Source: Mytilisepta virgata (taxonomy: Eukaryota > Mollusca > Bivalvia > Mytilida > Mytilidae). Taken from it: 64,000 bases of DNA. Made by a program: the position numbers and the translations under genes. The notes below the pieces were generated by a model. That model was not told the origin of the DNA. It saw only the letters and a program-made list of their open reading frames with translations, and did not search any database. The stretch covers positions 61,025,978 to 61,089,977 of the forward strand of contig CM051518.1 in assembly GCA_028015205.1 (NCBI GenBank). The letters run 5' to 3'. Positions within the stretch are counted from its first letter, which is position 1. Each line of letters opens with the position of its first letter. Below, in pieces: positions 3,790 to 61,441 of this stretch.

Positions 3790-5284
3790 TTTAGCTCACC
3801 TGGCTATTGCCAGGGTGAGCTTTTGCCATCACTTGGCGTCCGTCGTCAGTTCGTCGTCCGGCGTCCGTCGTCCGTCCGTCGTCCGGCGCCTGTTGTCCGG
3901 CGTCCGTCGTCCGTTCGTCGTCCGTTCGTCCGTCGTTAGCTTTTCATTCAAACATCTTCTCCTCAGAAACCATTTGGCCAATTCCAACCAAACTTTGCAT
4001 GAGTGGTGTATGGAAGGTCCTCAACAAAGTTTCCTCATTTAGTTCTGATTGGTCAAGAAACATGGCCACCAGAGGCAATTCTTGTTTCTGATTGGCTGAT
4101 TTTCAAAAATCTTCTCCTCTGAAACGGCTGGGCAGATTGGATAGAGGCTTCATAGGAAGGATATATGACATGTCCTCTACAAACAATCCTCATTTTATAT
4201 TGATCCGATGAAAAACATGGCCACTGTTGCTAAAAATAGAACATAGGGGGTAAATTGCTGTTTTTTGTCAATAACTCAAAAACCGTTACAGATATCGAAA
4301 ATCTGACAGGGTAAAATTGATCAGCATGACAGGATCTACGTACCCTGAAATTTTGAAGGAAATTCCAAAACCCATTTAGGAGTTATTGCCCTTTTTTCGT
4401 CAAATTTTCAAAGTTTTAACATTTTTCGTCATTTATCTCCAAAACTATTTGAGATAGAAGTGAAATGTAAATTTGAAAAATGTTTGCCATGTTGAGATCT
4501 TCCTACCCTGAAATTTTAAAGGAAATCCCAAAACCCATTTAGGAGTTGTTGCCCTTTTTTGTCAAATTTTCAAAATTTTTTCATTCAAAAATCGTCTCCT
4601 CTGAAACCGCTGGGCTGATTGGTTTGAAACTTAATTGGAATGATTTATGACATGTCCTCTACAAACAATCCTCAATTTATTTTGATCTGACATAAAACAT
4701 GGCTGTCGTAGCTAAAAATAGAATATAGGGGTGCATGTGTTGTTTTGGCTTATAACTTAAAAACCGTTACTGATATCAAAAATCTGACATGGGATAAAAT
4801 TGATCAGCATGACAAGATCTACCTACCCTGAAATTTTGAAGGTAATCCCAAAACCCATTTAGGAGTTACTGTCCTTTTTTTGTCAAATTTTCAAAATTTA
4901 ACATTTTTTGTCATTTATCTCCAAAACTATTTGAGATAGAAGTGAAATGTAAATTTGAAAAATGTTTGCCATCTTGAGATCTACAATTTTAAAGGAAATA
5001 CCAAAACCCATTTAGAAGTTATTGGTTTGTGTAATTTAAGGTCGGGTTCTGTTACATTTATTTAAGGTTCACCCTTATTCCTGGTCAATTTTATCAACTT
5101 CCTGCCCGGACTACCACCATCAGGGAACATATTTTAACATTATACCTTATGAAAAATAAATCTTCAACAAATTTTCTCTGAACAATTGAACCAATTGCAA
5201 CAAACTTGGTCAAATAGTTGATTAATTGTCCAATGAAAACCAGACTCCAGGTGAGCGATACAGGCTCTGGTGAGCCTCTTGTTT
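3790..5284 (+). mobile_element. AGCTCACC-type non-autonomous repeat, copy 1 (helentron-like plan)
   Basis: The 5' end folds as GCTCACCTGGC-tatt-GCCAGGGTGAGC. It is followed by TTTTGCCATCACTTGGCGTC and a long CGTCCGTCGTCCG microsatellite. The body has two roughly 490-bp units, each starting near 'tctcctctgaaac'. Near the 3' end, CAGGTGAGC is the reverse complement of the 5' GCTCACCTG. A hairpin AGGCTC-TGGT-GAGCCT and the terminal CTTGTTT come next. Small frames inside (for example 3754-3939 and 3815-4042) are products of the microsatellite, not genes. Confidence 0.75.
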
Positions 5285-8026: not shown

Positions 8027-9252
8027 TTTATTATCCCTCCGCTTCAGTGAAGTGCTAGGATATTGTTTTGCTGTTCGGAGTCCATATGTATGTTAGTAAT
8101 GACCAGGATAATCTCAGTAACCACTGGATGTAGAAAGATGAAACTTTGGCCATTGATTGCACTGTGTTGGGACTGTGCCAAAGGTTTCGGAATTTGAATA
8201 GTGCCCCATGGGGCCAGGCTACAAAGGTAGCATAAGGGTACATTATTCCTTTGTCACGCAACTCCTCTCAGCCTCAGGTTATTTGGAATACAGAACTGAA
8301 AGTTGGCTCAGAAATTGCCCTGTCAATGTAGATTGTGCCAAAGGTTTTGGAATTTGAAAATCTCCCCTTTGGGGCTGGGCTACAAAGGGAGCCTAGGGGT
8401 ACTTTATTCATTTGTCACGCAACTCATCTCAGCTTATTTGGAATATAGAACTGAAAGTTGGCCCAGAAATTGCCCTGTCAATATAGATCGTGCCAAAGGT
8501 TTTGGAATTTAAATAGCGCCATGTGAGAGCTGAGCAAAACGGGTGGCCAAAGGGTACATTATTTCTTTGTCATGCAATGCCTCTCACATTATTTGGAATA
8601 TGGAACTGAAGGTTGGCTCAGTAATTTCCTTGCCAATTTAGATTGTGCCAAGTGTTTCAGAATTTGAATAGCGCCCCTGGGCGCCGGGCTACAGCTAGCC
8701 TTAGGATACACTGTTCCTTTGTCACGCAATTCATCTCATGTTATTTGGAATATGGAACTGAAAGTTGGCTCAGTAATTGTACAACTTATTTAGATTGTGC
8801 CAAAGGTTTCAGAATTGTTTTAAGATGCAGTTCCAACTTTGGTAAATTTGCTGGAAGTCTCAAAGACCTTTTAATACTTTTTTGGTTTTTGACAAGAAAC
8901 CATGTATTTTCACATCAGCAGTAACACATATTAGGATCGTCTAGATGTCACAAATATCTGATTCCAACTTTGGTAAATTTCCTGAAAGTGTCTAAGACTA
9001 TTATTTTTGGAATTTTACTTAGCAATTATAGATTTTTTTTTTATCATATTAGCTTTAAGACTAATCTTGATCAGTTGAATTTCCAAATATGTGATTCCAA
9101 TTTTAATAAATTTCCTCAAAGACTACTTTATTTGTGATTTCTACGTAGCAACCATATATATTTGGAATCACTATAGCAACAGCACTAGTTTAGATTGTAT
9201 GGATTTCCAGAACAGAAGAGTAGTGCGAGGATATGCAGTGATGCAACTAGTT
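8027..9252 (+). mobile_element. TATCCCNCCGC-type repeat with ~157-bp tandem units (degenerate)
   Basis: The start 'ttattatccctccgcttcag' resembles the 5' end of the element at 11455. From about 8170 to 8830 the body is a tandem array of about 157-bp units marked by 'tgccaaaggtttcgg aattt' and a GCCCC..GGGGC..GGGCTAC core; the same core recurs at 11920 inside the 11455 element. The 3' end has GTGCGAGGATAT, roughly complementary to the 5' end, then a mini-hairpin GCAGTGATGC and ACTAGTT. The unit length is close to bivalve satellite-bearing helentron-like repeats, but no sequence comparison was possible. Confidence 0.55.
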
Positions 9253-9260
9253 CCCAGTAT

Positions 9261-10323
9261 TTTTAGTTCGCCTCAACAAAGTTGAGGGGGACTAATGGAG
9301 TCACCCTGGCGTCCACAACCTGTTCTCAGTTACTAGTTGACAAAGGGTTATCTATTTTTGTGTGCAGGTGCACGTTGAAGAGACTGACCATGTATCATAA
9401 GATGGAGGTCACATGACCCATATTACACGGTTGGCTGGCTTTTAAGTTTTATGTCAAAAATCAGTTTTAACATGCAAAATGACCAACAATCATATTACTT
9501 AGTGTGAAGGTGCATCACCAAAATTAGGTCACTGACCTACTTATCACACTTCATTGACTAAGGTTAAGTTTAACGTCCGAGTTCAGTTCTCCGATACCAA
9601 GGGACCAACATCATATTACTTGGTGTGATAGTGCATCTCGAGGAGTAACACAGCCTAGCGACCGACAATCATATTACTTGTTGTGATACTGCACATGGAG
9701 AGTAACATAGCCTCCCACCAAAATTAGGTCACTCTGACCTACTTATTGCGCTTCATTGACTTAGGTTAAGTTTTACCTCCGAGTTCAGTTCTCCGATACC
9801 AAGGGACCTACAATCATATAACTTGGTGTGAGGGTGCATCTTGGGATTAACATAGCCTCCACCAAAATTAGGACACCGACCTACTTTTCTTGTTTCATCA
9901 ACTTTCGTTAAGTTCTACGTTAGAGTTCACTTCTCTGATACCAAGGGACCTACAGTCATATAACTAGGTGTGAGGGTGCATCCACCAAAATTAGGTCATT
10001 CTGACCTATTTATTGTGCTTCATTAACTTTTACGTCCTAGTTCACGTCTCCAATACCAGAATAAGGGACCTACAATCATATTACTTGGTGTGAGGGTGCA
10101 TCACAAGGAGTAACACAGCGTTCCCCCAAATTAGGTCACCCTGACATATTTATCGTGCTTCATTTATTTAGGTTAAGTTTTATGTCAGAGTTCAGTTTTC
10201 CGATACCAAGCCACCTTCAGTCATATTACTTGCTGTAAAGGTGCATCTCAGGGAGCTACAAAGCCACACACCAAAATTATCGGGGGAAATGGGGCGAACT
10301 TTGTAATCGTACATTTCTAGTTT
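9261..10323 (+). mobile_element. AGTTCGCC-type non-autonomous repeat
   Basis: The 5' end folds as AGTTCGCCTCAAC-aaa-GTTGAGGGGGACT. The 3' subterminal GGCGAACT (10293-10300) is the exact reverse complement of AGTTCGCC (9265-9272). The element ends TTTCTAGTTT. The interior has about five imperfect tandem units (about 150-220 bp) with the words 'accaaaattaggtcac', 'tgacctacttat' and 'catattacttggtgtga'. The plan matches the other shared-plan elements although the terminal sequence differs. Confidence 0.7.
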
Positions 10324-10453
10324 CTATTTGTTTTATCACATCCTGCCTTGCAAGTCAGTATGGCAGTAGGACACAGGTATCTTGACTTGTGAGGATACTT
10401 TTATCATAGCTTGAGTGTATTTTTACCCACCATATTTTCTTTATTTATCACAG

Positions 10454-10579
10454 GGTTGTAGAAAGAAAACTATACAAGGTGATAGAACTGTTTATGTAGA
10501 TAACAAGCAACCACCTGGGGAACATTTGGAAGTTATAATACCTCAAAAATACCCAGATAACAGAGTTATCTCTTCAAAG
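10454..10579 (+). CDS. ATP11: flippase exon 1 (first found)
   Basis: Borders are cacag/GGT and AAG/gtaagac; phase 0 at both ends; 42 codons. It encodes RTVYVDN and [13 protein letters not shown], the cytosolic N-terminal signature of ATP11 proteins. In vertebrates this segment is the second coding exon, so a short start exon should precede it. Three more in-frame copies of the donor follow directly (see the array at 10565-11150). Confidence 0.9.
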
Positions 10580-13500
10580 GTAAGACACTTAGATATCACA
10601 GTTATCTCTTCAAAGGTAAGACACCTAGATATCAAAATTATCCCTTCAAAGGTAAGACACTTAGATATAGGTAAGACAATTACCGTGGAAGTTATAATAA
10701 TACCTCAGAATACCCAGTTAGCAGTAATCTCTTCAAAGGTAAGACAGTTACCATGGAAACATGTGGAAGTTATATAATAATACCTCAGAATAACCATTTA
10801 GCAGTAATCTCTTCAAAGGTAAGACAGTTACCATGGAAACATGTGGAAGTCATAATAATACCTCAGAATATCCAGTTAGCAGTAATCTCTTCAAAGTAAG
10901 ACAGTTACCATGGAAACATGTGGAAGTTATATAATAATACCTCAGAATAACCATTTAGCAGTAATCTCTTCAAAGGTAAGACAGTTACCATGGAAACATG
11001 TGGAAGTCATAATAATACCTCAGAATATCCAGTTAGCAGTAATCTCTTCAAAGTAAGACAGTTACCATGGAAACATGTGGAAGTTATAATAATACCTCAG
11101 AATAACCAGTTAGCAGTAATCTCTTTAAAGGTAAGACATTGCCAATGAAACAGATGAAAACTATAATACGTAACAAATGCCCAAATATGGGGTGGTATTT
11201 CAACAGTAAGCATGATAACATCATGAGCTATAATGTAAAAAATAACCCTATATAACAATAATCAGCTGTATAAGAGCCATCCTTTTATTGTGGTAGGAGT
11301 TAAAATTTTATGAACATTTTTGATGTACCAGTAATCAAAGTTAGCTTGCAATAAGAATGAAAAGAATCATCCTAAATTTGCTTACTCAGCAAGTCAATAT
11401 AAACAAGTGGTTAGGTCTGTTTTATATTTCTCATTGATTTAACTTTAGTGTTTATTATTATCCCCCCGCTTAGCGAAAGCGGGGGGATCATGTAATACAG
11501 TCCGTCCGTACGTACGTACGTACGTACGTCTGTAGTGGCAAGGCATATCTCTGAAACGGTAAAAGATAGAAACTTGAAATTTGGCATCATGGAAGAGTAT
11601 ATGACCCACTAGGGAATAGACCCCTTAAAATTGGAATTTGACCCCTTGGGGCCAAATTATGAGCGAAAAACGAATTTCGCGATATCCAATAAATGGAGAT
11701 ATCTCCAAAAGTGTTAAAGCTAGGATATTGGAACTTATGTCACTACTTATATTGCCTTTCCCAAGTTGAAAGAGGGTATCAAAATTTTGGTCCCGCCCCT
11801 AGGGGCAATGCCCTAAGGAGTTAAAAAATGTCTAAAAACGATTGTCCAAGAACTCCTCCTACACCGTAGAAGATAGAAACATGAAATTAGGTACACTAGT
11901 AACACTTGAAGAGTTGTCTGTGCCAAAGGTTTCGGAATTTTGATTTTTGCCCGGGGGGTGGGGCTACACCCTAATATGTAAAATCTCAAAATATGGTAAG
12001 ATCAGTTCATATCCCCTCCCCTTAAACATATATATTTTTATTCCACATTTAAAGACGAGTTACATGGTCACCCCCGGGGGTCAGCCCCACCCCCCTCATT
12101 TACAAAATTACAAGTTATCTCAAAAACAGTTAAGATCCCCACCCCTAAACCATATATATTCTTAGTGGGCATGACAAGACAAGTTTAATGGTCATCCCCG
12201 GGGGTCGGCCCCACCCCCCTAATTTAGAAAATTACAAGTTATCTCTAAAACAGTTGAGATCCCCACCCCTAAACCATATATATTCTTAGTGGGCATGACA
12301 AGACCAGTTGAATGGTCATCCCCGGGGGTCGGCCCCACCCCCCTCATTTACAAAATTACAAGTTATCTCAAAAACAGTTGAGATCCCCACCCCTAAACCA
12401 TATATATTCTTAGTGGGCATGACAAGACCAGTTGAATGGTCATCCCCGGGGGTCGGCCCCACCCCCCTCATTTACAAAATTACAAGTTATCTCAAAAACA
12501 GTTGAGATCCCCACCCCTAAACAATATATATATTTAATGGACATGACAAGTTAAGACTTACATTCATTTGATGTAGGCCATTCCAATTTTATCCATCTTA
12601 AAACTTTTGCATTCGACTTTGTCCGAGCAGTAGAAGTCCAATTTCATATTTCTGTGTTGTTTCTTGATATCCAAAGATCAGTGTCAAACTTTTTCTCTAT
12701 TTATGCAATTTGAAATTATGAGGGGTTCAGACTTTGTGCATTCTGACTTTGCGGGGAGCGGGGGGATGTGCAATCTCTGATTGCTGCGTTTCATTTTAGA
12801 TAATCTAGTTTGTATGCACACAGTTCAATCAAGAAGATGCATCTGTAAATGTTTATAATCATTAGGTGTTTCTGTACAAGTACAAATCTTTTTGGCTAAT
12901 GTTCAAAATTTATGTTTTTTCACTACTTGAATTGCCAAAATTAACCATGTTAACAGTAAAACAAATAAATAATTTTTTTTTGCAATTCCTCCTGTTTTTT
13001 TTTATATTTAAGTTTGTATCTAATCTTATATATACAGTCAAACCTGTCTATTAAGGGCACCCAAGGGACCAGAAAAAAGTGCCTTTTATGAGCAGGTACC
13101 CTCTATACTGAGGTTAATTTTACATGCTTTGTTCATGAATGGGACTTTTTCACAGTGCCCTTTATAGACAGTATTTGCTATATAGAGGTGCCCTTTAAAG
13201 AAGGTTTGACATGATATAAAATTGAAATGAAACGTTTTTATGAAAGAATCAAAATTTCTTTTTAAATCATGTAAATTGAAATAAAATGTGTGTAAATTTT
13301 CAGTGCATTTCAGTCATGTGTGTCAGTAGACAACTATTTGTAATTTTATTTCCTCTCCAGCATTTTCAATATACACATATTCATAACAGTGAACTTTAAC
13401 TTATAAAGTTATAAATTTAAAAAAACAGAAAAAAATTTCAAATTGAAATCGGCCAACTTCTCGATTGGCTTTAGAGAATGTTTTTTTCAGCTAATCACCT

Positions 13501-16500
13501 CAATGGTATCGCCTAGGGTGCAGAAGGTTGCAGGTTCGATACGCTGTCGAGTCAAACAAGACTTTGAAATTGATTTATTTGTTTGGAGTCAGAATAGTGT
13601 GGCTGGGATGACATGTATTCCTGTCAACTTTTATTTTTGACCTAGCATGTTAAAAATCCGGCTTAGTGTGTGGTTCTAGTACAAAGCATGGCTCATATTC
13701 GCATCACATCTGTATGATATACCGTTACATTTGTACTTGTAATGATTGCCACTGGACTTTTAACAATAATCCATCCATTTTAAACTTTTATCCTACATGT
13801 ATATTTACATGTACAATGTGTATACTAGACTGCATGAATGGTAACCCTGAAAATCTAGTTTTAATATTTCTCTTTTCAGTATACAGCGTGGAATTTCCTA
13901 CCAAAGAATCTGTTTGAACAGTTTAGGAGATTGGCAAATTTTTATTTTCTCTGTGTTGGATTTATTCAGGTAAGCATGACTAAAAATTCAATTTTGATTT
14001 TAAAAATGAGAATACAAGTACATGTATTTTATTGTGATTCTTTGGTTTTCATTCAGGTTGTGAAATAGTTCCTTTCCCATTACGATTTCAAAGAACGTTT
14101 GCCTCATACATGTACCATAATATGAAACCAGATATCTAGCTTTTATCATTGCATCAATTTATGGAAAAGGTATCAGCTTTTTTAAAAAAACTGAAAGCTC
14201 TCCCACACACCCTGATTTATCAAAAGTTGTAATTTGCCATCACTGTGACTGTCGTCCGTTTTAGTAAATTTTCTGAAACCACTGGCCCAATTGGGACCAG
14301 TTTTGGTGGAATAGTTGTTGTATTGGGTGCAGCATCCCTGATTTCCAATGACGAGGACTGTCAACCAAGATGGCCACCACTGCTGAACTTAGTTTAACAT
14401 AGGACCCTATGGGAAAATTAATTTGAATATCCTCTAGACTGAAACCACTTGGCTGGTTCTTTCAGAATTGTGTCCAATGACCCTGTTCATGACTCAGACT
14501 GTGAACCAAGATGGCTGACACAGCCGAACTTATCTTAGCATAGGATCCTATGGGAAAATTCATTTTAAAATCGTTTTGTCTGCAACTACTAAGCCAATTG
14601 GAACCAGACTTGGCAGCAGTGGTCCTCTTGTATTGTCAACAAAGATGGCCACCACATCATAGTTTATCATAGGACCCTATTGGAAAACCAGGCAAGATGC
14701 CAACTGCACTTAAATGTTTAGTCCTGCTCAGGGTGGTGAAGTTAAATCCAGGTGAGTGATTCAGGCTTATGAGAGCATCTAGTTTCATAGTACCATGATA
14801 TAATGCATATATACATGTACCCATTGCAGGATGATTCTCGCATGGGTATACGTTATTTTTTTTATTATTATTTGACTCACTGAAATACAAATGATACAAT
14901 GATTAGAATTTTATGCAGAAAAAAACTGATAATGATTATAACCAATTGTTGCTTTTTGTCAGTTGTATAACAAAAGTAAGGTTTTATAAAACCATTGTCA
15001 AGTGTCAGGAAATGTATTTTATTATCTCATCTTTTATAAAGATTTTATCCAGTTGTTTTGGAAATTATCAGTTGATTTGTAAACCTTAAATTTAATGCAT
15101 ATTGTTTATTTTTTGTATAGAAAATACTTAAATAGAAATATTGATATGAATTTCATAATGATTTGGAAGGGAAAAGTTGGTGGGGGGGGGGGGGGGGTGG
15201 GGGAGATAAAATATTGGTCATTTAAGTGGGAAAGAACCTTAACAATGCATATGTTAAAACAGTTAATACCTCAACGTGATTTTTGATGAGTTCCAAGTAT
15301 CAGACTATCCTGACTCTGTTGTGATTATGTTTGTGTTTTGTGCTCTTTTAAGTTATTGTTTGTTTGGGGTCCTGTCTGTTGGGTAGGGTTTATTTATTGG
15401 CTTGTCATTGTTGACCTTTCCTGTTATCCATTTTGTTTTTCACTGTTTGAAATATTTAATTTCTTAATTGACATCAATTGGAGTAAGATTTGATTTATGG
15501 ATATTATTACCCCCATGATAAGTAAGCAAATATAATAACTACTGTAAATTCGGAAATTATTGCGAAAAATGCGACAGGTTTGTAATCGCAATATTTTAAA
15601 CTCGTATTTTGGAATTCTTTATATGAATGAAGTGGGATTTTTCTCAATTCGCAAAAATTAAAATCGCATTTTGGTCTTAAATGACAAAATCGTAATAATA
15701 AATGCACGCAATAATTTCTGAATTTTCAGTATAGAAAATCCTGGTTAAATCAGGAGTAATTGATTATTTTCAATATTTGACAAATTATGTGTGCAACTGC
15801 AGCAAGACACATTATGTATAATATTTTAATTTAATTGGAATTAGCTCCATAATTAAGCTTAAGTTGTTCAACCCATTGAATATTTATTTACAGTTGATAA
15901 TAGACAGTCCAGTCAGCCCTGCAACTAGTATTGTTCCATTAGTGTTTGTTGTTCTGGTAACAGCAATTAAACAGGTAACCAGTGTGAATTATATTTGAAT
16001 ACTTATAAGCTCAGCTGGACTGAAGATTCATACGAGCTGTTGTCACTTTTGAAAATTTTTTAAACTATGGTCATTTTCCTGTTTTATTTATTCTTTAATA
16101 TAAGAATTAATATTGTAGATTATTTTATTCTTATGTTTAATGATAAAGATAATTATTGCAACTTTGTTACTTTTAACGTAATGTCATATTTTCCGTGATG
16201 CTGGCAAATAGTGGTAATTTTGATAATCTTTACTGTATCTCAACCCATGGAAGATAATTTTATTTATCCTTGAATTTTGCAAATAACTAATTGTAGTGGG
16301 GAAATTGCAGGCTCATGGGAATATTGTTTTTTTATACATTGATAAAGGACGACATCAAAAGATCAATGTCGGATAAAAAACTTAATTCAAATAGTTTGGG
16401 GGGGGGGGGGGGGGGAGGGGTTAAAATCGCTGCAAATAAAAGGCATCAAATCATATTAGAAAGCAAATTTTTGGCCAAGAGTTTTGGGGCAAAATCAAAC

Positions 16501-19500
16501 ATAGTATATCGATCGTGAATTTTGAATGATTATAATTTAACAGTGCCTTTTTTGATGCATACTAAAAATGCACATCACTTTTTTCCAATATTTTTTAAAA
16601 GTGATGTCCAAGTCAATATACAGAACAAACATACATTGTTGAGGAAAAACAGGACGCATGATACAAAAAGTATACTCTCAAAGCATATGCCCATATTGGT
16701 AAATCAATTTTTCCCAAATTAAGTTAAGAGGGGGGGTGGGGTGGTCAGTGAAAAAACTATGTGAATTAAGTTTTTTATCCTACATTGAACTTTTGATGTC
16801 GTCCCTAAAGGGATCCTATAACATTCCACGAAGCCATATTTGTTACTTTATTACAGGGCTATGAAGATTGGCTAAGGCATAAATCTGACAATGAAGTAAA
16901 CAACAGGGTTGCCTATGTTGTCAGAGATGGAAAGGTTGCTCAAGTCAGATCTATGGATATCAAAGTAAACATATATATGTAGATCTTATTTGTGAGATAA
17001 TTTCTAATTTATCTTAAATTTGTATTCATCTTAATTTTATTAAGTCATGGACATTTTATTTTCAGAATTCAGAAGTCACAAGATAATAGTGTCATGTATT
17101 TTTACTTCATAGATTTATCCTAATCCGTGTTTTCTCTCTTCGTGACAGTGTTTATTTAAAGGTTCTATTATTTAAAGTTCCTTGCTGTGAGCCATTTGTG
17201 CTTTTGTTATCACTTCGCATCAGTTGTAATGTACTTGTCCATTTTCATTCTATAGAATTTTCACATTTAAACCTTCTGCTCTGAAACAATAGATTCAAGT
17301 AGAAAAATATATTAAATTTTACTGTCCTGACATGAAAATATACACCCTTCACTGAAAGATTTCAAAATCTCATAATTACTTTTTTTTCATCATCAGACAC
17401 TTAGCAAATCTCATGTGTGATAAAAAAATTTGCCATCCTACATCACTCTTTACAGGCTTTAAAAACATTGTGTTGATATAATTTTTTTCTCATTTTGATT
17501 TTATATTATCTGTAAATGTTTAAGCATGATTTAAAACCTCAATAATTTTGTCTTCAATTCAAACATTACTAAATAAAAGCACTAGAGTAATATTTATGAC
17601 GGATATTATACTAATCCTTTATCAAACACTGTGACATAATAACATATGTACATTTCTCTCGATTAAAATATGAAATTAAAATAACAGTCAGGCATTTCAC
17701 TACCTGTGTCAGAAATATTTACTTACACACAGATTAACCCTAATAATTACATATATATTAATTATAGATGACCGAAGGCCAGTATTGTTTAGTCTCTGTT
17801 TTAACTGACCATACATTTCATTAATTATATACTACAGAGAGCAGTCTAAGGGAGACATTATTGCTGCATCATTTTTAGGTTTCAGTATTTTTATTTTAAT
17901 CTTTAGATTCTATGAACTTATAAAGTTGTTGTTATAATTTGTAACATTTCAAGTCGGTCCTTATGTTCTAAGTGTATATTTAGTTTTATTTAGCTGTTTT
18001 AAAAAAATATTCTAAGTGCTTCATTTTGGGTTTAAGTATATATTCATTTCCAATGACTGTCACAGGATGTACGTTGGAAATTAAGGATAGTCAATTTTGT
18101 CTGATATTTCAAACAAGTCCTTCGTGCAACAGACAAACAGCTTCACATCCTTAAAGTACGGTAAATGTTATTTTCCTGTAATGGTCATTATGACAGAGAC
18201 AAGTTGTTTGAAAGCTTTATATTTCTGAAGTATTTCACATGATCTTTTACTGAGAACAACAAAACTTTGTAAGGAGAATTAATTCGCTGTATCCTTTCTT
18301 CCAGAGTTTCATAACAAAATGTATAATGAAATGCATATTGATGTACATGTTAAAAAGCATATCACTAGGCTAAAGTTTTCACAAAAATTTGTGCAACTAT
18401 TTTTGTCTCGCCTGCGACGAAAGTCGCTGGAAGCGAGACATAGGTATAGCAATCCGGCGGCGACGGCGAAGGCGACGGCGACGGCGACGGCGTTAACTTT
18501 TTGTAAAACCTTAATAACTTTTAAAGTATAATACTTACAATGTTCATCTTTGGTCCACAGGTGCATGAAGTGATGACCTTTTCAGCAGCACATTTTTAGA
18601 TGACTTTGACCTTTTTTTCATGGTTCAATACCCACATAAACATTGCGACATAGTTTTACATTCAAATCCTTTTCTCAGAAACTATAATACCTAGAGTTAT
18701 TATATTTGGTCTACAGTGAGATCTATATGGGTACATGCCAGTCTGACACCTGTCATTTGTCCTTGACCTCAATTGCACGGTTCAGTGAACTTCGAAAATC
18801 TGCGACATAGTTTTACATTCAAGTCCCTTTCTTAGTAACTGTAATGTTTAGAGTCATCATATTTGGTATATAGTAAGATCTATATGGGTACATGGGAGTC
18901 TGACACCTGTCATGTGTCCTTGACCTCAATTTCACAGCTCAGTGACTTTGTCAATTTTTTCTTCTAAAGTCCATTTTTCTGCAACTACAATGAATAGACT
19001 CATCATACATGGCTTATAGCAAGATCTGTATGGGTACATGCCAGTCTGACACCTTTCATGTGCCCTTGACCTCAATTTCATGGTTCAGTGACTTTGTCAA
19101 TTTTTTCCTCAAAAGTTTATATTTCAGCAAGTGCAATGACTAGATTCATCAGATATGGTCTATAGCTAGATCTATATGGGTACATGCCAGTCTGACACCT
19201 GTCATGTGTCCTTGACCTCAATTTCATGGTTCAGTGACTTTGTCAATTTTTTTCTTTAAAGTCTATTTTACAGCAACTACAATGAATAGACTCATCATAC
19301 ATGGCTTATAGCAAGATCTGTATGGGTACATGCCAGTCTGACACCTTTCATGTGCCCTTGACCTCAATTTCATGGTTCAGTGACTTTGTCAATTTTTTTC
19401 TTTTACAGTCCATTTTTCAGCAACTGCAATATCTAGACTCGCCATATATATAAGAACTTGCCCACCTCATATTTTCAGATTGATCACTAATGTTTTAATT

Positions 19501-46500: not shown

Positions 46501-49500
46501 GAAACAACATAGACAGATAATCTAAGAATAACTTTACAGATCGAGAAGTGGGACTAGCTTGTCTCGAATTACACCACAAAATCCAGCTTCTCCAAGAGTA
46601 TTCATACTGAACATTGGTTGACTTTCTCCAAGATTTAAGAAAGATTTTTGTAGTTTTGTCTGAAAAACCTTGATTAAGGAGATGTTTCCTGAAACAAGAC
46701 AGGCGATAAGAAACATTTTTCTTGTGTTCATTGTGTGTCTTTGATTGTTGTGTGGTAGAGTTAGCAAGTTTGACAACTGAGGCAATTTTACAGGAAAATC
46801 TATTAATGATTTCAATAACTTTGGATACCATAACTGAGTTGTCCATACAGGTACGATTATAATTGCCCTGCTTACCTGATCGTCTTCTATCTTTTGAAGT
46901 ACTCTGCTGATTTGACTGAAAGGAGGAAATATATAAGGATATAATTCATGCCATGAAAATGAAAAAGCATCAGTTGCATAAGCATCAGGATCTGGAAACC
47001 AGCTTACAAAATTATTCAATTGTTTATTTAGCCTTGAGGCAAACAAATCCGTATCTGGGATGAAAAAATGTTTGGTTACTTGATGAAAAACAGATTCATT
47101 GAGTTTCCACTCTGAAGTGTCATTAAAATTTCTTGATAAATTATCTGGTATAATATTTTCTTTCCCTGGAATATGAACAGCAGAGAGTAAAACTTTGTTT
47201 TTTATACACCAATACCATATTTGTTTTGTTATTTCTAATAAAGGTAAAACTGATCCTCCTTGATTATTTATATAATTTACAGCAGTTGAACTATCTGATT
47301 TTACACAAATATGTGTTCTTTCTAAATGGCAGCAAAGTGATATTATGCTAAAATAGATTGCTTTTAATTCTAGAATATTAATGTGTAAACGCTGTTCTTC
47401 TAAACTCCAATGACCTTGAGTTTGTTTTCCATGAAAAACAGCTCCCCAACCATTGAGGGAGGCATCTGTGTGTAAATAATAACTAGGGGAATCATTTCTA
47501 ATAGGTCTCCCGTTTACTGTTTTAACATTTTTTAACCACCAATTTATTTCAGATTTGCCTTCTACCGAAATATTCATATATGAATTGAAATTATTATTTG
47601 ATGTATGTAAAGCTCGTGTTTTGTCTAAATCTAAATATCTATGAAACAAGTGAGAATACTGTACTGCATAATGCGCAGATGAATAAAGTCCTATTAATTG
47701 TGCCAGACTTCTAATTGATACTTTGTGAGCTTTTAGTATATTCTTTGACAGTTCAATTATTTTCTGTACTTTCTCCTCTGGTAAAAATACCTTAAATAGT
47801 ACTGAATCTATAATATATCCCAAAAATGTAATTCTGTTTGTTGGAATAAAGACAGATTTTTCAATATTAATGTCAAAACCAACTGACTCTATAAAAGTTT
47901 TAACCCTTTCTGTATTTTTGATAGCCAAATCAAAGTTTTCTGCTTGCAAAAGGGAATCATCAATGTAAAAATATGAATCAATACCCATACTCCGAATATG
48001 TGAAAATATTACTTTCAGTATTTTTGTAAATACTCTTGGAGCAGAAGCAATTCCGAATGGTAGACATTGAAATTCATATAATTTTTCATCCCATATGAAT
48101 TTTAGATATTTTCTATCTGATTCATAGATTGAAATGGAAAAATATGCCTCTGTCAAATCCAAAGATGTAAAAAAGCTATTTTTTGAAATTCCCTTTAAAA
48201 TCAAATCTAAAGTTTCTTGTTTAAAATGGTGATAGCTAATAAATTGATTCAATGTTTTCAAATTAATGACTGGCCTAAATTTACCATTTTTCTTTTTTAT
48301 TAGAAATATATTTGAAATAAACTGTTCTGATTCATCAAAAGATTCTTTGATAGCACCTTTATCAAGCATATCAACTATTTCTTTATCAATAAGCTCCTTT
48401 TCCTTATTGTTAAATTTTATAGGAACTGGAATTTTTTCCTGAACTGGCTTTTTATCAAATTCTATCTTATATCCCTTAATTGTAGAGATAATCCAATTGT
48501 CTTTGGTTAAATATTTCCAATTAGAAATAAAGTTTTTCAGTTTACCTGACTTTCTTTTAGTTTTTGAACTTTTATTTCTCACCTTTAGAATCTTCTTTTC
48601 TGACTGTAGCCATTGGGTCTGTTTCCTCTCAATTGACCCCTCTGATAACTTTGCCTTGGCTGATAGCCCCTTCTGCCTAAAAAACGATTTCTTCCTCTGA
48701 AATTACCTCTGTAGCTGGAATTTCTACCATAGCTGCTTGTTATGTTCTTGTTAATTTTGTTAATTTCATTAATATCTTTTAGCCTCTTGCCTACATCATC
48801 ACCGAAAAGGTTACTACCTACATCTTCATTGCGATTGCAAAGTTGGTGGTACTTTCTATCAATGTGTGGCTTCAAATACATCCTTCTTTTAATTGACAAC
48901 TCAAAATGTGTATTACTCAAAATTGCCATTGCTTTGGAAATGTTCTCTCGCATCATTTTTACATCTGGAGTTTTGGATTTGAGAATTTCTGCCACTTTTA
49001 TTAATGGTACCATGCCACACCCTAAAGATTTTTGTATTGTCTGAAGATTCAAATCTGACGTTTTTGCTTTACGTTCGAGAAACTGCCATATCTCGGCATT
49101 AACTGGAGGTGCTACCAAGCTCTTGCAATTCACTGGTATTTTCATTTCTCTTGTCATTACTGACACATCAGATTTCTTTTTACAGATACTGTCGAAGACT
49201 TTAGCCAGAGATGGGCTGACCTCTTCATCATATTTTTCATCATCCTCAAAAATTTTAGGTATTTCGTAATCAAACTCATCATCTGATGCAACAACTTGTA
49301 GTTCATTCTCCTCATCAGAAAATATATTATAGTTGTTGTCAATCACCTGTTCATCAGCTACCGACTCGTTCTCTGAAAATTCCATGTCAGCTAATCTAGA
49401 ATCCATACTATCTGGTCTTTGTGACTGTTCTTTATTCTGATTTAACGTGGATACCAAAGTGTCTGATAAACCTTTAAACAGAGTTTTAAGTAATTCCGAC

Positions 49501-52500
49501 TGATCTGGATTATTCTTTGTAGTAGTTTTCTTTACTGTGGCTGCGCGAGGTTTCGTAGCCTTCGTAACCTTTCCACGTTTTTTCACCGGACTTACTATTA
49601 TTCCACTCCCTGATGGCAACTCATTGTCCACCTCAGTCACCTCTCTTTTATGTGTTTTTTGTTTACTGACTAGAGCCTTGCCTTTTGCAGTGTTGACACT
49701 CTTTTTACCTTTCACTGCTTCACTTTCAATCTGTTTTTGTTTTTGTGTAACTGCCATTCGGATATCCTCGGCAATTAATACTTGTGCTTCCGGGTTATCC
49801 AACTCCGGGTCAATGTTCTCAATTTGTGAGAAACCAGAAAACGAAGCGTCAACTTCTTCGTCCGACGCAAATAATTTCAATATTTCATCTTCATTGTCAT
49901 CACTGGCACTGTCGCTTAAGCGCGATGTACAGCGCGACATAATTTATGTATTAAACAGCTGACAGGTTCTGTCAAATCTTGAAAATTTTATTTTCAATAT
50001 GTATCCGATTCGGATAAAATATTTTACAACAGAGTCTGTTGCAAACTTGTAATTTCGTGTTTAAATCGATTCGACTTATTCCACGTGCGGCCTTTTAAAA
50101 TAAAGAGACTGGTTGGGTCTCTGCACGTTCTTATATAGTGCAGTGGTCATACAAAAAATCACTCAGCTGTGAAAAAAGGCGTGCGGCCTTGACATAAAGT
50201 AAAGGTTCACTTATTAACCTGAGCAAGCCCAGGATTATGATATATAATATTATATTTTATACGAATGTAAGGATATGGGGTTATCATTGGTGAGACCATC
50301 TCATGAAAATGATAATGATGTAACTTGTTGTCTTTACCTATACCGTAAAATGCACTAATTGCCCCCCTAAAAATTGTTAAAAATTCAACAGTAGTAATCA
50401 ACCCCCTTCCCTCAAATAAATACAGCATTCCATATGGATACCATCAAAAAGATAGACAAGATGGGATGTTTACTTATTAACTCTTACTCCATATCCTTAC
50501 ATTTTCTAAATACAACCAAAGAGAAGTAAAAGAATTTGTCATGGTTCAACCCATTGTGAGATCTCAACCGTCCCTCTAAACAACAATAGACAATAGAAAA
50601 CAATCCATGCTATGTCAAAGACTTTACATGGCAATAACAAACAGATTGCAAATTTATTGTGTAATTAATCCTTTAAATGTAATAATATTTTATTTTGGTC
50701 ATTGATTGAACTACAGTCGAACTTCAGTAGCTCGAACTCAGATTTCTCAAATACCACCTATGGCTCAAACAATTTTAAAAGTCCCGTAAATTTTCCCTTT
50801 ATTTTCATTTTAAAAAAACTTTGATTCCCCAAACAATGAAAAGTCAAACAAAAAGTTTGGTTCGAATAATGATAGAATTGTGTATTTTACCTTTGAAAAC
50901 TCGAAATCAATAATTGAATAGACAAGTGTGTTGAACTTCTTACAGATGTCATAAAAATAGATTGTCTGACAGGTAAATGTTCACAGTTCGATGTAATCAA
51001 GATGTCATAATTATTGTTAATTAGTGATTAAAATGTTTAATTTTAATTAAAAAAAACATTTCATGGTAATAATCAGTTGTACCAACTTGTATGCAGTATG
51101 GCACTAGAAATTTTTCATACTTGAACAAAGATCAGTAACTGGAACAGATTTTGACAGTCCCTTGGATATCAAGCCATCAAAGTTTACTGTATTTTTTTTC
51201 TGTTGGTCAGTTTTCCTATTTCAATCATATTTTGATTGGTTTTGAATTTTTAAAGTTTAAGTTATTATTTGATGATTTTCACCTAATATTTTGCAATTTT
51301 TGAATTTTCACATATTTTCTTGATAATTTGCACTTTGTTTTAAATTTCAGTCATTATTTGATAGTTTTTATTTGATGTTTTACAACATTACAATGACATC
51401 ATTACCCATATTCCTGTACAGTTTATTTGAACAACATACCAAACAGTCCACATTGTTAGAGCATCCACAACTTTACAAGTGAGTAACATTTTAGTGTATG
51501 GTTTCATGTCGTTGCTGTTTTGTGAATTGTTTTTCCATTTGATTGTATTGGTCATGAAATGTTGTCTTGTAACTGTTTTATCTACCTGTTTCGTTACCTG
51601 TATGTGTATTGTTAAGAAAAGTTGTTTTTTTGTATTATTTAGGTAACATATCCATGTTGGGAGATATTTTATTCTCATTGCTTAGCAATGCATGAAAATT
51701 TCTCCTGATCTTAAGACATTTAAATTGATAAGTGCTTTAGTATTGTTTTGTTGTCTTAAAGAGGAAGGAAATTTCATTTCCAACTTCTACATTGGCAGAT
51801 ATAATAGCAGTGTACGTGAGGGTTAAGAAAAGGGTGTACAATTGAATTAAATTACTATATACATTGACAAAAATGTCTTCTTTATATTGAAATATATTTT
51901 TTATATAGTTTGCAATTTAATTTTAAATGCAGTACTGGTTTTACATCAATATCTGTTGTTAAAAAAAAACCATTTATCCAATGAAATGTGTGCCCTAAAC
52001 AAATTTATTTACAGTCTAAATAGTTTGTGGAATTCGTTTATCTCTGTAATTCGTTGGAATTATTGTTTTGCGGTTGGTAAATTTCATGATTTTATAATTT
52101 TCTACCAGGTTTTTCTATGGTTTGGCAATGTATGGCAGATGGCTGCTAAGGCCACACCAAATTGATTTTTAGTTCTTTGAATTTTTTTAATGGCAAATAT
52201 AGGTGCGAGCAGGCGAGAGTTTAATTTTAATTTTTTTTCTTGAGGACCAATTTTTTCAGGCGAAGATCAAATTTACGTGCGGCACAATATTTTTAAACTA
52301 AAATATTGCAACAAATGGAAAAAATATCGGTATCTTTTACCAAATTTTAGGAGCAGACGAACACCTTGTGTTTATTTCTTGAAAAATGAAGAAATTTGGG
52401 TGAATTTTCAGCATTTTTTGCTAAATTAAGTGGCAAAAAAATTTTTCCTCAAATTTACAAAGTCTGAAAATTGGAGCGGCGAAATCCAAAGAACGAAAAA

Positions 52501-55500
52501 TCAATATGAAGTGGCCTAATGATGGAAAATCCAGTTTGATTTCTCATTACTTGGCTAGTAATAATACATTATGAAATTTTACATTTCATTGTTTGAATTT
52601 CTGGTTCTTCTTATCCCACAAAAAACCATGAAATTTGTACCCATTGGAATATGATAGATCTTTAGTAACTGAAAATATACAGAAAATTTCTGACAAAAAA
52701 CAAAACAAAATCCATTGGTGTGATTTGATAAGCACTTGAAATTTCATGTAAATGCACAGTAATGTTGTTATAGTTTGGTGAATTTTTAGCATTTTAGCAT
52801 TAGATTTTGCATGGAGTTTTTATATTTCAGAAAAATATCAAGAAATCACAAATTAAGTAAAAAATATTTCATACAGTGGAATGCTTTAGGTAAGAATTGT
52901 GGTATATATAATAAGACAACCTAAAATAAATTCTCTGATTCAAAGACAATTGATTTTTCAAAAATGTCAAGGTAGGCAGGGAATTTACTTTGTTTATTTA
53001 TTTTTTAGCTCACCTGACCCAAAGGGTCAAGTGAGCTTTTCTCATCACTTGGCGTCCGTCGTCCGTCGTCCGTCGTCGTCCGTCGTCCGTCGTCGTCCGT
53101 TAACTTTTACAAAAATCTTCTCCTCTGAAACTACTGGGCCAAATTGAACCAAACTTGGCCACAAGCATCATTAGGGTATCTAGTTTAAAAAATGTGTCCG
53201 ATGACCCCGCCTACCAACCAACATGGCCGACATGGCTAAAAATAGAACATAGGGGTAAACTGCAGTTTTTGTCTTATATCTCAAAAACTAAAGCAATTAG
53301 AGCAAAACTGACATGGGGTAAAAATATTCATCAGGTCAAGATCTACCCGTCATGAAATTTTCAGACGAATCGGTCAACCCTTTGTTGGGTTATTGCCCCT
53401 GAATTGTTAATTTTAAGGAAATTTTGCAGTTTTAGGTTATTATCTTGAATTTTATTATAGATAAAGACAAATTGTAAACAGCAAAAATGTTCAACAAAGT
53501 AAGATCTACAAATAAGTCAACATGACCAAAGTCGTTGATTGACCCCTTATAGGAGTTTTTGCCCTTTAAAGACGGCATCCAGCGTAAGCTATCCTTTAAA
53601 GATCTTTTCCTCTCAAACCACTGGGCCAAATGAGACCAAACTTTGGTGGAATGGTCCTTGGGTGGCCCTCTTCCAAAATTATGTCTGGCATCCCCGACTT
53701 CCAACCGAGATGGCTGCTGTTACTAAAAATAGAAAAAAAAGGGGGGTGACTTTCAAAAATCTTCTTATATGAAACTAGAAGTCCAGTTGCAACCAAAGTT
53801 GGCAGTAATAGTTCTTAGGAGGTTCTCTTTCAGAAATATCTCCAATGACCCGGACTGTTAACCAAGATGGCCGCCACAGCCGAACTTAGTTTAACATAGG
53901 GCCCTATAGGAAAATTCATTGAAAAATCTTCTTGTCTTAAACCACTTGACCAATTGGAACCAGACTTGGCAGCAATGGTCCTTAGATGGTCCTCTTACAG
54001 AGGTGTGTCCGATGACCTAGACTGTCAACCAAGATTGCCGCCACAACCGAACTTAGTTTAACATAGGGCCCTATAGGAAAATTCATTGAAAAATCTTCTT
54101 GTCTGAAACCACTTGACATATTGGGGCCAGACTTGGCAAAATTGGTCCTTAGCAGGTCTTTTTTCAGAAATGTGTCTGATTTCATGGACTATGAACCAAG
54201 ATGGCCGCCACAGCAGAACTTAGTTTAACATAGGACCCTATGGGAAATTCACTCAGAAATCTTCTCGTTTGAAACAACTAAGCCAATTAGAATTAGACTT
54301 GGTAGCAATGGTCCTTAGATGGTCCTCTTTCAGAATTTTGTGCGTTGACCCAGACTGTCAACCAAGATGGCCGCCACACCCGAAATTAGTTTAACATAGG
54401 GCCCTATGGAAAAATTCATTGAAAAATCTTTTTGTCTGAAACCACTTGACATATTGGAGCCAGACTTGGCAGCATTGGTCCTTAGGAGGTCCTCTTTCAG
54501 AATGTGTCTGATTTCGTTGACTGTGAACCAAGATGGCTGCCACAGCAGATCTCAGTTTAAAATATGACCTTATGGGAAATTCACTCAAAAATCTTCTCAT
54601 CTGAAACCACTAAGCCAATTAGAATTAGACTTGGTAGCAATGGTCCTTAGATGGTCCTCTTTCAGAATTTTGTGCGATGACCTAGACTGTCAACCAAGAT
54701 GGCCGCCACACCCGAACTTAGTTTAACATAGGGCCCTATGGAAAAATTCATTGAAAAATCTTGTTTCTGAAACCACTTGGAATATTGGAGCTAGACTTGG
54801 CAGCATTGGTCCTTAGGAGGTCCTCTTTCAGAAATATGTCCGATCACCCGGATTGTAAACCAAGATGGCTGCCACACCGACCTTTGTTAAATATTGGACC
54901 CTATAGGAAAATTCATTTAAAAATCTTCTAGTCTGAAACCACTTAGCCAGTTGGAACAAGACTTAGCAGAAATGGTCCTTAGATGGTTCTCTTTTAGAAA
55001 CTGGACTAACAACCAAGATGACTGCCACAGCTGAAATTAGTTTAACATAGAATCCTATAGAAAAACCATCCAAATTGACTGCAACACTTAAATTTTTAGA
55101 TCTGCTCAAGGTGAAAAGTTAAATCCAGGTGAGCGATACAGGCTCTTGAGAGCCTCTAGTTTTATTTCCTGTAGAAAGAGGCAAGGGATTTTCAGGTTAG
55201 GTGTTTATTTTGGCGACAAACAAATCCATTTTGAAGCCATTCACTTCTATGACATTTTGATTAGACATACAGGTTATCTGGTTTCAGTGCCTCAAATTTT
55301 CTCCATTTCCTATTCAAATGTTCGTCTCCAGAGCTGTTCCACTGAACAGATAGTATCATCCATGGAATAATTTAGAGCAAATATTCAATGTCAAACTCAC
55401 TGCCATGATCGTATCAGCTGCTTATTAACTTTCATTTTGACTTTGTCACACAATTCTTGAAAATTGAGTCATGGTTGGCAGATGTTGAAAAGTACTTTTG

Positions 55501-58500
55501 GTGCCAAATTTCGAACTTTAATTTTACAAAAAAAAACCTAGGACAGCGGCAGTTTTTTTCCAGAATGAAATAAAATTGTTCCATTGGAAACATTTGAAGT
55601 GGGGTGGCGGATTCTGAGAAACAGATATTTAAGTTTATATAACCTAAAATAGACAAAAAACTTGATTATGTAAAAAATTATGTAAAAAAAAATTAACTAA
55701 ATATTAATGAATTACGCCTAAAAATATTGCACATTGTAAAGAAATTTTCAAATGATCATGGGAAAAGGGTATATTACCCATTAATATGACCATAAAAATA
55801 AAACAGTTTTAAAGTTTATCAATTAGTTATAGCAAATTTCTTGCATTAGCTAGTGAAGCAAAACTTTACATTAGAATGAAATGTTTATTACACAAAGGAA
55901 TAGAAGTACTGTAAAAGCAGAAATTTCGTTTGGAATTTAATTTTGTAGGTAGGTATAATCAACGAAAATTTATTCCCAACAAAATACGACCCTTTGTTAA
56001 ATTTGGAATCCACCAAATTTTTCCCCAAGAAATCATTATCAGAAAGGAATTTTAACCAAATGAAAATTAGTGGTTTTACAACATTTAACTTGTTTGACAT
56101 TGCAAAAAAGGTGTGCTTGTTGAAATTTTCTTTCCACATACCATGGTTCAGTTATATAATTTTTGGCATCACAAACAAATCTTTTTACATCATGTGATTT
56201 GTGCCTTTTGACACCAGTAATAGGAAATTTGTTTAAACTATATACATTGTTATTCATAACTAAATATCTTTCTCTTTGTACAGGCCTATGGCATGCAGTT
56301 GTATTTTTCTTTGGAGTTTTTCTTATGTTTGATGGTGATGTCACATTTTACAAAGATGGGAAGGTAATTTACTTTTCCAATAATATACACTTTGCTTTTG
56401 TCAACTAAAACTCTTTTTATCTCCAATATCCTGTTAACTCAAGGTAATCTGTCCAACTCAAGATTTACTTCGTACAGTACTTTTACATTCCTTTCCCCAT
56501 TTTGTTTTGAAGCAAAAACAAATTTTTGTCAAGAATTAAGAGTGGCGCTGAAAATCTAAGAGTGACAGACCTCAGTATAACTATTTTATTCATGACATCT
56601 GAAATTTTGTCATCCCTTCAACCATGAGTTAATGAGAGTAATCAATAGTGCATGTCAGAATTGCTCATAATCTAATATATCTGATTGATAAAATTTAGGG
56701 GTCATGGTTTGACCTTCTTATGTATTTTATGTAAATAGACAGTGCTTCCATTTTTTTTCTGAAACATGTACATTAAATTACTGTCTTTAATATTTTGTGA
56801 ATAACAATTCAAAGGAAAGAAGTAATATGGTGGATAAATTCTTTACACAAAATCCATACAGAAGTCAACCAAAGTAACAGCATTTTATTGCTGTTCATCA
56901 ACTGAAAGTCACAGTTTGTCCTTCAGCACAAAGTAAAATCTTGCAACTCACTCAAGTTTAAAGTCACAGTTTGTCCTTCAGCACAAAGTAAAATCTTGCA
57001 ACTCACTCAAGTTTAAGATGTCCATATCAATAATAAGTTTATTTTTAAGTATGGAACACTAGTGTGAAATTTTAAATAAATTATTATCTGTTATTTTATG
57101 AATTAAAATTACTTTAGGAATACTTGCCTGACTTCTGATTAAATGATTCTGTTTAGGAAAAGATATTTTGTATGAAGACATATAACCACTAAGGCCACAT
57201 TAAATTGATTTTAGTTCTTTGGATTTTTATGCCCCGCCCGTAAGGCAGTCCGGGCATATAGTAGTTCGGTCTGTGCATCTGTCCGTCCATATGAGGTTAA
57301 GGTTCAGGTTTAAGGTAGTTTTTATACGCCCAGCAAAATTTTGAGAGAACGTATTATGGTATACAAATGTCCGGCATCCGTCTGTCCGTCTGTCCGTCGT
57401 AAACATGTCGCACCGTAACTTGAGAACAACTTATCCAAATTTCATGAAACTTAACATAGTTGTTTCTTATGATGGTCAAACGATCTGTATACTTTTTGGT
57501 GAAAATAAGATTAAAACCTTTTGAGTAACGGGACTTTGTAACTAAAGCAGGGGTGTGTTTTTTTCACATGCCGCGTCGTATCTCATAAACGATTTATGAT
57601 TATTGCTTAAAACTTTACACACTTCTTAGTTATATTAATCTAAAGATCTGTATACTTTTTGGTGATGATTCAAAATTTTATTTTAGAGTTATTGAGTTTT
57701 TTGTAAAAAAAAAAAGGGGGGGGGGGGGGGGGGGGGGGTTTCACATGTCGCACCGTATCTCAGAAACTATTTATGATAATTGCATAAAACTTCACACACT
57801 TGTTAGTTATATTAATCTGAAGATCTGTATACTTTTTCGTGTTAATTCTTTATTTTATTTTTGAGTTATTGAATTTTTATTGAGCTTTTTGGTAAAAAAG
57901 GTAGTCTTTTTTGGTCACATTTTGTGCCGTATCTCTATTGCTTAAAAGTTTACACGCTTATGTTTTGCTGGGTTTCCATATGTTTTTTTCACAAGACGAT
58001 GGGCGTATCATGCGCTCGTGGCACAGCTGTTTATTCATGAAGGAGTTATGATATCATCCTGAAACTTTGTACATGGATAGCTTGTGATATGAGCAGCAGC
58101 ATTTTGATGTGAAAAGGATGCTGTGACCTTAAAGTCATGGGTCATCGACTTTGAATTTCTTTATGAAATTTCAAAATAGAATCCAGGTTCAGGTTTAAGG
58201 TGCAATGTAGTTTTTCATGAAGGAGTTATGGTATCATCCTGAAACTTTGTACATGATAGCTTGTAGTATGAACAGCAGCATTTGGATGCAAAACGGATGC
58301 TGTGACCTTGATGTCATGGGTAATCGACTTTGAATTTGTTTATAGAATTTCAATATAGGCTCAGGTTTAAGGTAGTTTTTCATGAAGTACTTAGAGATAG
58401 AATTTCATCTGCCCATATCATTAAGGACTTCAAAGTCAACAATATGCACATTTAATTCTATTTACTAAATACTTACATCTTTGGCAGGGCATGTAGTGTC

Positions 58501-61441: not shown

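What the first reader, a model, noticed from the sequence alone, without database searches (positions are those of the whole stretch)
3790..58524. A set of repeat families with one shared plan but different, self-complementary ends
At least seven terminal types (AGCTCACC, ATCCCNCCGC, AGTTCGCC, GTCTCGCCTG, TATACCCCC, ATGCCCCGCC, ATACGCCC) occur in 64 kb. Seen directly in the better copies: the first 8-10 bases of the element recur as reverse complement just before the 3' end. Exact pairs are 11460/12758, 18405/19866, 9265/10293 and 57324/58001. All have a T-rich left flank, and most a CGTCCGTC-type block, tandem units of about 120-190 bp, and an end of CTAG/CTTG followed by TTT. Several have a 3' hairpin. 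Helentron-like non-autonomous elements are known for 5' ends complementary to a 3' subterminal site, a 3' hairpin and T-T insertion. So many terminal types sharing one body plan in one window suggests fast diversification of ends recognised by one replication machinery.
Basis: partly seen in the sequence, partly recalled or inferred. Interest (0 to 1): 0.8.

Follow-up and report, generated by a model that had tools for sequence, protein, structure and literature searches.

The report
Rolling-circle transposon families with self-complementary ends
The repeats are known-type jumping genes (short, dependent relatives of Helentrons) whose many different ends are each matched by a complementary copy inside the same element, and where a host gene could be recognised they nearly always lie in its direction.

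Summary
Nine elements of seven terminal types lie at 3793-58521; in each the first ~10 bases recur as reverse complement near the 3' end, and in most also in a 5' hairpin. A detector demanding this anatomy finds 7 elements on + and 0 on -; 60 shuffled windows gave 1. Own 3' partner is best for 7 of 7 window types, 11 of 11 with four more from nearby, though types were partly chosen for complementarity. This is the anatomy of HINE/DINE-1, non-autonomous Helentrons, described from mite, fly and oyster with several end types per genome (PMC4067079, PMC7492417): new members of a known kind. The genome holds at least 150 Helitron Rep matches, many in long open frames; none could be tied to these ends, so 'one machinery' is not shown. 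All nine are on +; 20:3 over 264 kb (20:4 with one found later); 15 of 15 pairs within 20 kb on C1 agree; 17 of 18 lying in five recognisable genes are sense. The sample is small.

The parts
3793..5281 (+). HINE, AGCTCACC type; 5' hairpin 3793-3821, GTCC block 3835-3937, 3' subTIR from 5248 (CAGGTGAGC), 3' hairpin, CTTG|TTT
8033..8850 (+). decayed HINE, ATCCCTCCGC 5' end plus 155-bp array; 3' end not found, end coordinate approximate
9265..10320 (+). HINE, AGTTCGCC type; 5' hairpin 9265-9293, 142-bp array, 3' subTIR 10293-10300, CTAG|TTT
11460..12808 (+). HINE, ATCCCCCCGC type; 5' hairpin 11460-11488, 124-bp array, 3' subTIR 12758-12767, hairpin GCAATC/GATTGC, CTAG|TTT
14339..14787 (+). HINE fragment related to the AGCTCACC type
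18405..19896 (+). HINE, GTCTCGCCTG type; 5' hairpin 18405-18439, CGGCGA array, 146-bp array, 3' subTIR 19866-19875, CTTG|TTT
26159..28172 (+). HINE, AGCTCACC type; 5' hairpin 26159-26187, 166-bp array of 11 units, 3' subTIR from 28135, CTAG|TTT
36190..36638 (+). HINE, TATACCCCC type; 5' hairpin 36190-36224, 156-bp units, decayed 3' subTIR 36600-36609, CTAG|TTT
40621..42400 (+). read by eye as two abutting decayed HINEs: 163-bp array ending in AGGTGAGC near 41645, then an AGCTCACC-type 5' end near 41660; outer borders approximate
53007..55159 (+). HINE, AGCTCACC type; 5' hairpin 53007-53037, 166-bp array, 3' subTIR from 55126, CTAG|TTT
57229..58521 (+). HINE, ATGCCCCGCC type, interrupted by the next element; 3' subTIR 58483-58492, hairpin GTGTCC/GGACAC, CTTG|TTT
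57324..58029 (+). HINE, ATACGCCC type, nested in the T run of a tandem unit of the former; 3' subTIR 58001-58008
10446..59030 (+). host gene: exons of an ATP11C-like P4-ATPase, first to last recognised exon (borders approximate); HINEs between them are intronic and sense

Best explanation
These are HINEs: non-autonomous Helentrons moved in trans by Rep/helicase proteins that the same genome encodes. The 5' terminal ~10 bases pair with a local inverted copy to make a 5' hairpin, and are also complementary to the subterminal 3' copy, which lies inside a short 3' hairpin region. Most likely the Rep cuts single-stranded DNA at the hairpin-marked ends; the 5'/3' complementarity brings or matches the two ends before joining, so a change at one end must be matched at the other while the bases themselves are free to drift. 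That would explain many end types with one plan. Insertion is between Ts without target duplication. SHOWN: anatomy, own-partner matching (with selection caveat), T-T sites, Rep matches in the genome, local co-orientation. INFERRED: trans mobilisation, role of the pairing, ssDNA target. Sense orientation inside genes is best explained by transcription, either through exposure of the non-template strand as target or through loss of antisense insertions; I cannot separate the two.
For: 7 elements found by the detector against 1 in 60 shuffled windows. For the 7 window types the true pairing is the only 1 of 5040 arrangements that reaches the observed sum; 0 of 200,000 random arrangements for 11 types. 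First-10 matches 103 of 110 to the 3' copy, 93 of 110 to the local inverted copy. Two pairs of types differ by one 5' base with the matching change at the 3' end: GTCTCGCCTG/CAGGCGAGAC vs GTGTCGCCTG/CAGGCGACAC, and ATGTCTCCCC/GGGGAGACAT vs ATGTCGCCCC/GGGGCGACAT. 5' 38-mers fold (RNA energies) with z -3.3 to -5.3 in 7 of 9. Flanks share only Ts in 10 of 11 types, TTATT in one. The nested copy at 57324 sits in a T run whose uninterrupted tandem paralogues are at 58199 and 58364. Rep domains: 150 scored of 317 candidates, all listed ones over the family cut-off, many long open frames; the search's 14 control genomes gave none. Anatomy as in PMC4067079 and PMC7492417 (passages).
Against: No Rep gene was tied to any of these ends. 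PF14214 was not used to tell Helentron from Helitron, and the endonuclease domain was not looked for. 3' 50-mers do not fold better than shuffles by energy (z -1.9 to +0.4 in 9 of 9), although at least five (three AGCTCACC copies, 11460, 57229) show a clear short hairpin by eye. 57324 (z 0.6) and 57229 (z -1.5) have weak 5' hairpins.
Confidence: 0.87

Rival explanations
1. MITEs or other terminal-inverted-repeat DNA transposons.
For: Inverted repeat between the two ends; earlier authors filed DINE-1-like elements as MITEs (stated in PMC4067079).
Against: The 3' copy starts 30-52 bases inside the end, not at it, in the window types; shared flanks are Ts, one TTATT; third copy in a 5' hairpin.
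Confidence: 0.04
2. Several unrelated Rep lineages each with its own fixed end sequence, no coevolution: end diversity is simply old family diversity.
For: Window bodies of different types do not align. Scored Rep matches span E 1.5e-62 to 1.8e-25 with frames from 169 to 2892 aa.
Against: End types differing by a single matched base pair point to stepwise change that keeps complementarity.
Confidence: 0.45
3. Co-orientation comes from local segmental or tandem duplication rather than from insertion or selection.
For: On C1 three 3' flank pairs link the + run (0.9-1.12 Mb) to the - run (1.57-1.76 Mb) as an inverted duplicate and one links two copies within the - run (18 copies compared); one of the 15 close pairs elsewhere is a 3.9-kb tandem duplicate; the other 14 were mostly not tested.
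Against: In the window and in L081, L082 and L084 the co-oriented elements belong to different families. Pairs 5-50 kb apart in the 264 kb are 73 direct to 14 inverted for HINEs, against 32:15 for other repeats, or 13:9 without a tandem gene cluster at 126-151 kb; the control is itself somewhat direct-biased at that range, so the contrast is moderate.
Confidence: 0.2
4. Co-orientation only mirrors strand composition (T runs commoner on the sense strand).
For: T5+ runs 258 against 196 A5+ runs in the masked window.
Against: With that ratio 20:3 still has p 0.003 and 9:0 p 0.013, counting elements as independent; not computed for 20:4.
Confidence: 0.1
5. Orientation follows replication fork direction (lagging strand), not transcription.
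For: IS608, another HUH element, uses lagging-strand ssDNA (as cited in PMC4778049, passage).
Against: Agreement is complete within 20 kb but gone by 50-100 kb (9 of 28) outside the duplicated stretch, gene scale rather than replicon scale. HINEs are sense both in + genes (ATP11C-like, SET, FERM) and in the one named - gene (ZC3H15-like), so the strand test rests on a single - gene.
Confidence: 0.12

Closest known systems
HINE (Helentron-associated INterspersed Elements), e.g. HINE-Mo-1 to -7 (PMC4067079) and Cg_HINE in oyster (PMC7492417)
   Same: 5' subTIR, nearby complementary IR, GTCC-type microsatellite, satellite-like array, 3' subTIR, 3' palindrome, TT insertion, several families per genome
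   Different: Different end sequences; here end matching is tested across types and the elements are co-oriented with host genes. The Cg_HINE paper says both orientations occur in the assembly (passage); the passages read test no relation to genes
DINE-1/INE-1 of Drosophila
   Same: subTIR, IR nested with the 5' subTIR, microsatellite, 3' stem-loop, TT preference (PMC4067079 passages)
   Different: its conserved core was not looked for here
pearl / CvE / MgE elements of bivalves
   Same: comparable architecture according to PMC7492417 (passages); MgE is reported from HSP70 introns of a mussel (title in a reference list only)
   Different: sequence not compared here
IS200/IS605 (IS608) HUH elements
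   Same: works-like comparison only: hairpin-marked ends and pairing-based end recognition (recalled)
   Different: bacterial, small Tyr transposase; not a family assignment

Membership tests
HINE (non-autonomous Helentron) | 5' subTIR repeated inverted near, not at, the 3' end | tested here: met
   9 of 9 window elements, about 30-52 bases inside; 36190 decayed, 7 of 10
HINE (non-autonomous Helentron) | short inverted copy next to the 5' subTIR | tested here: met
   7-10 of the first 10 bases matched within 50 nt in 10 of 11 types; ATACGCCC only 6, no better than chance; strong fold in 7 of 9 window elements
HINE (non-autonomous Helentron) | 3' palindrome/stem-loop | tested here: inconclusive
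   clear stem by eye in at least five of nine; energies not below shuffles
HINE (non-autonomous Helentron) | insertion between T and T without target duplication | tested here: met
   flanks share only Ts in 10 of 11 types, TTATT in one; 36190 has a single T on the left; paralogous empty units for 57324; no orthologous empty site available
HINE (non-autonomous Helentron) | microsatellite and central tandem repeats | tested here: met
   arrays of 124-179 bp units; GTCC block in 7 of 9 by eye
HINE (non-autonomous Helentron) | shares ends with an autonomous Rep/helicase/endonuclease element | tested here: inconclusive
   Rep domains abundant; their flanks could not be fetched, so ends not compared
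canonical Helitron | 5' TC, 3' CTRR, insertion between A and T | tested here: not met
   5' ends start with A, G or T, T-T sites, CTAG/CTTG/CTG ends

The most novel reading that the evidence does not exclude
Helentron-type insertion is steered by transcription: the element enters the exposed non-template strand of expressed genes, so its orientation records the direction of transcription, while its ends are recognised by DNA-DNA pairing and so can drift freely as long as both ends drift together.
Probability: 0.25. Interest if true: 0.78.

Novelty: new member of a known kind. Interest (0 to 1): 0.5.

Why it matters
The end types are a natural mutagenesis series: paired single-base changes at both ends say which positions must match, which bears on how Helentron Rep proteins find their ends. 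The gene-wise co-orientation, if it holds genome-wide (15,051 exact 3' ends of one family alone), would give a direct test of where Helentrons get their single-stranded target, a question left open in the Helraiser work (PMC4778049, passages).

Tried and rejected
First scan with 8-mers only was too noisy and was dropped. Pattern searches for AGCTCACC ends in viral contigs: 5 loci with the exact 17-mer, by eye all unrelated; none for the 5' hairpin pattern. In genome contigs, by eye 1 of 34 loci was real: L029, 34% GC, in a Bathymodiolus symbiont assembly, very probably host DNA. Blastn of one element against phages: nothing. The long strand runs on C1 0.2-2.0 Mb (26 of 28 +, then 20 of 20 -) first looked like replication domains; 3' flanks showed an inverted duplication, so that stretch was left out of the claim. 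Exon frames without a Pfam match: 4 of 8 proteins (three ATP11C-like exons and the polymerase-like frame), 6 of 10 (three more gave only sub-threshold matches), 4 of 5 (the fifth sub-threshold), 1 of 3 (one more sub-threshold); one PDB search was empty. The L085 gene stayed unnamed and was not counted. A minus-strand detector hit inside the L084 array is in a GC-rich tandem unit, judged chance. Paper searches aimed at a published orientation bias of Helitrons/HINEs listed nothing that reports it by title or abstract start; passages of PMC4067079, PMC7492417, PMC4778049, PMC9341512 and PMC13286980 did not either; no whole paper was read.

Full report
WHAT IS THERE. The window is G000:C11:61025978-61089977 of a 1.03-Gb genome. 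Nine elements have both ends defined: AGCTCACC at 3793, 26159 and 53007; AGTTCGCC 9265; ATCCCCCCGC 11460; GTCTCGCCTG 18405; TATACCCCC 36190; ATGCCCCGCC 57229; and ATACGCCC 57324, nested in the last. A tenth (8033) shows no 3' end, 14339-14787 is a fragment, and 40621-42400 reads by eye as two abutting decayed elements.

IS IT MORE THAN CHANCE. Requiring TT, a terminal hairpin, a complement of the first ten bases (at most one mismatch) and CT[AT]G|TT within 300-3500 bases gives seven elements on + and none on -. Sixty shuffled windows gave one hit on + and none on -.

CO-VARIATION. For the seven window types each 5' end matches its own 3' region best; of 5040 arrangements only the true one reaches the observed sum. 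Four more types come from nearby DNA: GTGTCGCCTG, ATACGACCGC, ATGTCGCCCC, ATGTCTCCCC. With these, own partner is the strict best in 11 of 11 and 0 of 200,000 random arrangements do as well. These four were found by a filter that allows one mismatch; all four match 10 of 10. GTCTCGCCTG and GTGTCGCCTG differ at one base and so do their 3' copies, in the complementary way; likewise ATGTCTCCCC and ATGTCGCCCC. The local inverted copy next to the 5' end is kept less strictly (93 of 110 against 103 of 110 first-ten matches). The shuffle control is therefore the cleaner evidence.

WHAT IT IS. Passages of two papers describe the same anatomy as HINE/DINE-1, non-autonomous Helentrons: subTIR of 11-15 bases, nearby inverted copy, microsatellite, tandem array, 3' subTIR and palindrome, TT preference. 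The mite has seven families and 21 subfamilies, the oyster eleven elements, with end changes specific to each element. So the finding is a good, independent rediscovery. None of the 150 scored Rep matches lies in the window; its long frames are a DIRS-type retroelement. The genome does hold Rep domains: 150 scored of 317 candidates, many in open frames of 1800-2892 aa. I could not fetch their flanks, so the link between Rep and ends stays inferred.

ORIENTATION: THE NEW OBSERVATION. All nine elements, and all eleven library-matched intervals in the window, lie on +. In the next 200 kb the count is 9 + and 3 - (a narrower library gave 9 and 1); a further - element, GTGTCGCCTG at joined 109219-108805, was found later. 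Over 264 kb that is 20:3, or 20:4. HINE pairs 5-50 kb apart are 73 direct and 14 inverted; other repeat pairs at 5-50 kb are 32 and 15, or 13 and 9 without a tandem gene cluster; over all distances the controls are 54 and 58. The genome-wide pattern for the AGCTCACC 3' end has 7503 forward and 7548 reverse copies, reversed-pattern control 0. So there is no global bias, only a local one. Only the first 100 places (C1, 0.2-5.73 Mb) were listed. Close pairs (<20 kb) agree in 44 of 44. A stretch at 0.2-2.0 Mb contains an inverted duplication (4 homologous flank pairs among 18 copies compared); leaving it out, 52 copies give 15 of 15 under 20 kb, 18 of 30 at 20-50 kb and 9 of 28 at 50-100 kb. At least one of the 15 is a tandem duplicate.

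Seven stretches were fetched around or between such copies. L081 and L082 hold only - elements, L083 and L084 only + elements, and L081, L082 and L084 are of mixed families (apart from one chance hit in L084); L087 holds only -, L088 only +, L085 none. The stretches were chosen for close AGCTCACC copies, so the agreement of the other families is the informative part.

HOST GENES. In the window an ATP11C-like P4-ATPase (E 1.5e-134 for joined exons) runs on + from about 10446 to 59030. The exons align in order; the first (6 bits) and last (17 bits) are weak on their own. 9 of 9 HINEs between them (eight intervals and the nested one) are sense; 7 of these lie downstream of the first strong exon (16809). 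In L082 a ZC3H15/Tma46-like gene (E 1.5e-30) runs on - and 3 of 3 HINE 5' ends in its introns are sense. In L088 a SET-domain gene (E 6e-9) runs on +; 1 of 1 between its two exon-like frames is sense, though the second frame has no significant match. In the FERM gene (E 7e-5) 2 of 3 intervals downstream of the recognised exon are sense, one antisense; its end was not found. In L029 a HINE and a second 5' end inside it lie between two exon-like frames of an unnamed gene without Pfam match, 2 of 2 sense. Total 17 of 18, in five genes and two species. Elements in one gene are not independent, so the real sample is five genes, of which the named ones are three on + and one on -.

MECHANISM. Steps shown: complementary ends, T-T sites without duplication, Rep domains present, local co-orientation. 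Steps inferred: Rep acts in trans; the hairpin marks the cut; end-to-end pairing is what selection preserves; single-stranded target. Sense orientation could arise at insertion (non-template strand exposed by transcription; Helraiser integrates more in highly expressed genes, PMC4778049 passage) or by loss of antisense copies. An idea only: the AGCTCACC type reads TTTTTTAG at its 5' end and CAGGTGAGC near its 3' end, which resemble splice sites in sense direction (recalled consensus); the other families do not, yet are sense too.

VERDICT. Ordinary in kind, real in its main details, with one unexpected pattern that deserves a genome-wide test.

Noticed in passing
window 45719-49943 (-): DIRS-type element: tyrosine recombinase (PF00589), RT (PF00078) and a third frame.
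   Followed up: partly
L084:1208-1514: Six copies of the same HINE 5' end, 60-63 bp apart, in front of one 3' end: repeated 5' termini.
   Followed up: no
L045:6302-10000 (-), continuing into L046: Open frame of 1471 aa resembling a Polinton-type DNA polymerase B by eye; the L045 part has no Pfam hit.
   Followed up: no
L029: Contig of a Bathymodiolus symbiont assembly that looks like host DNA, carrying the same HINE families, including ATGTCTCCCC.
   Followed up: partly
G000:C1 about 0.9-1.84 Mb: Duplication, partly inverted (or unmerged haplotype), with 95-99% identical flanks.
   Followed up: no
L087:1826-7588: 3.9-kb tandem duplication including a HINE.
   Followed up: no
L048:970-4512 (-): Single-frame Toll-like receptor, LRR plus TIR; the segment around it (78-200 kb of the joined sequence) has only three HINE intervals, all on -.
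   Followed up: no
window 34484-35321: 50-bp tandem array with an inverted stretch at its end.
   Followed up: no
G000:C6 and C7: Many of the listed Helitron Rep matches lie on C6 and C7.
   Followed up: no
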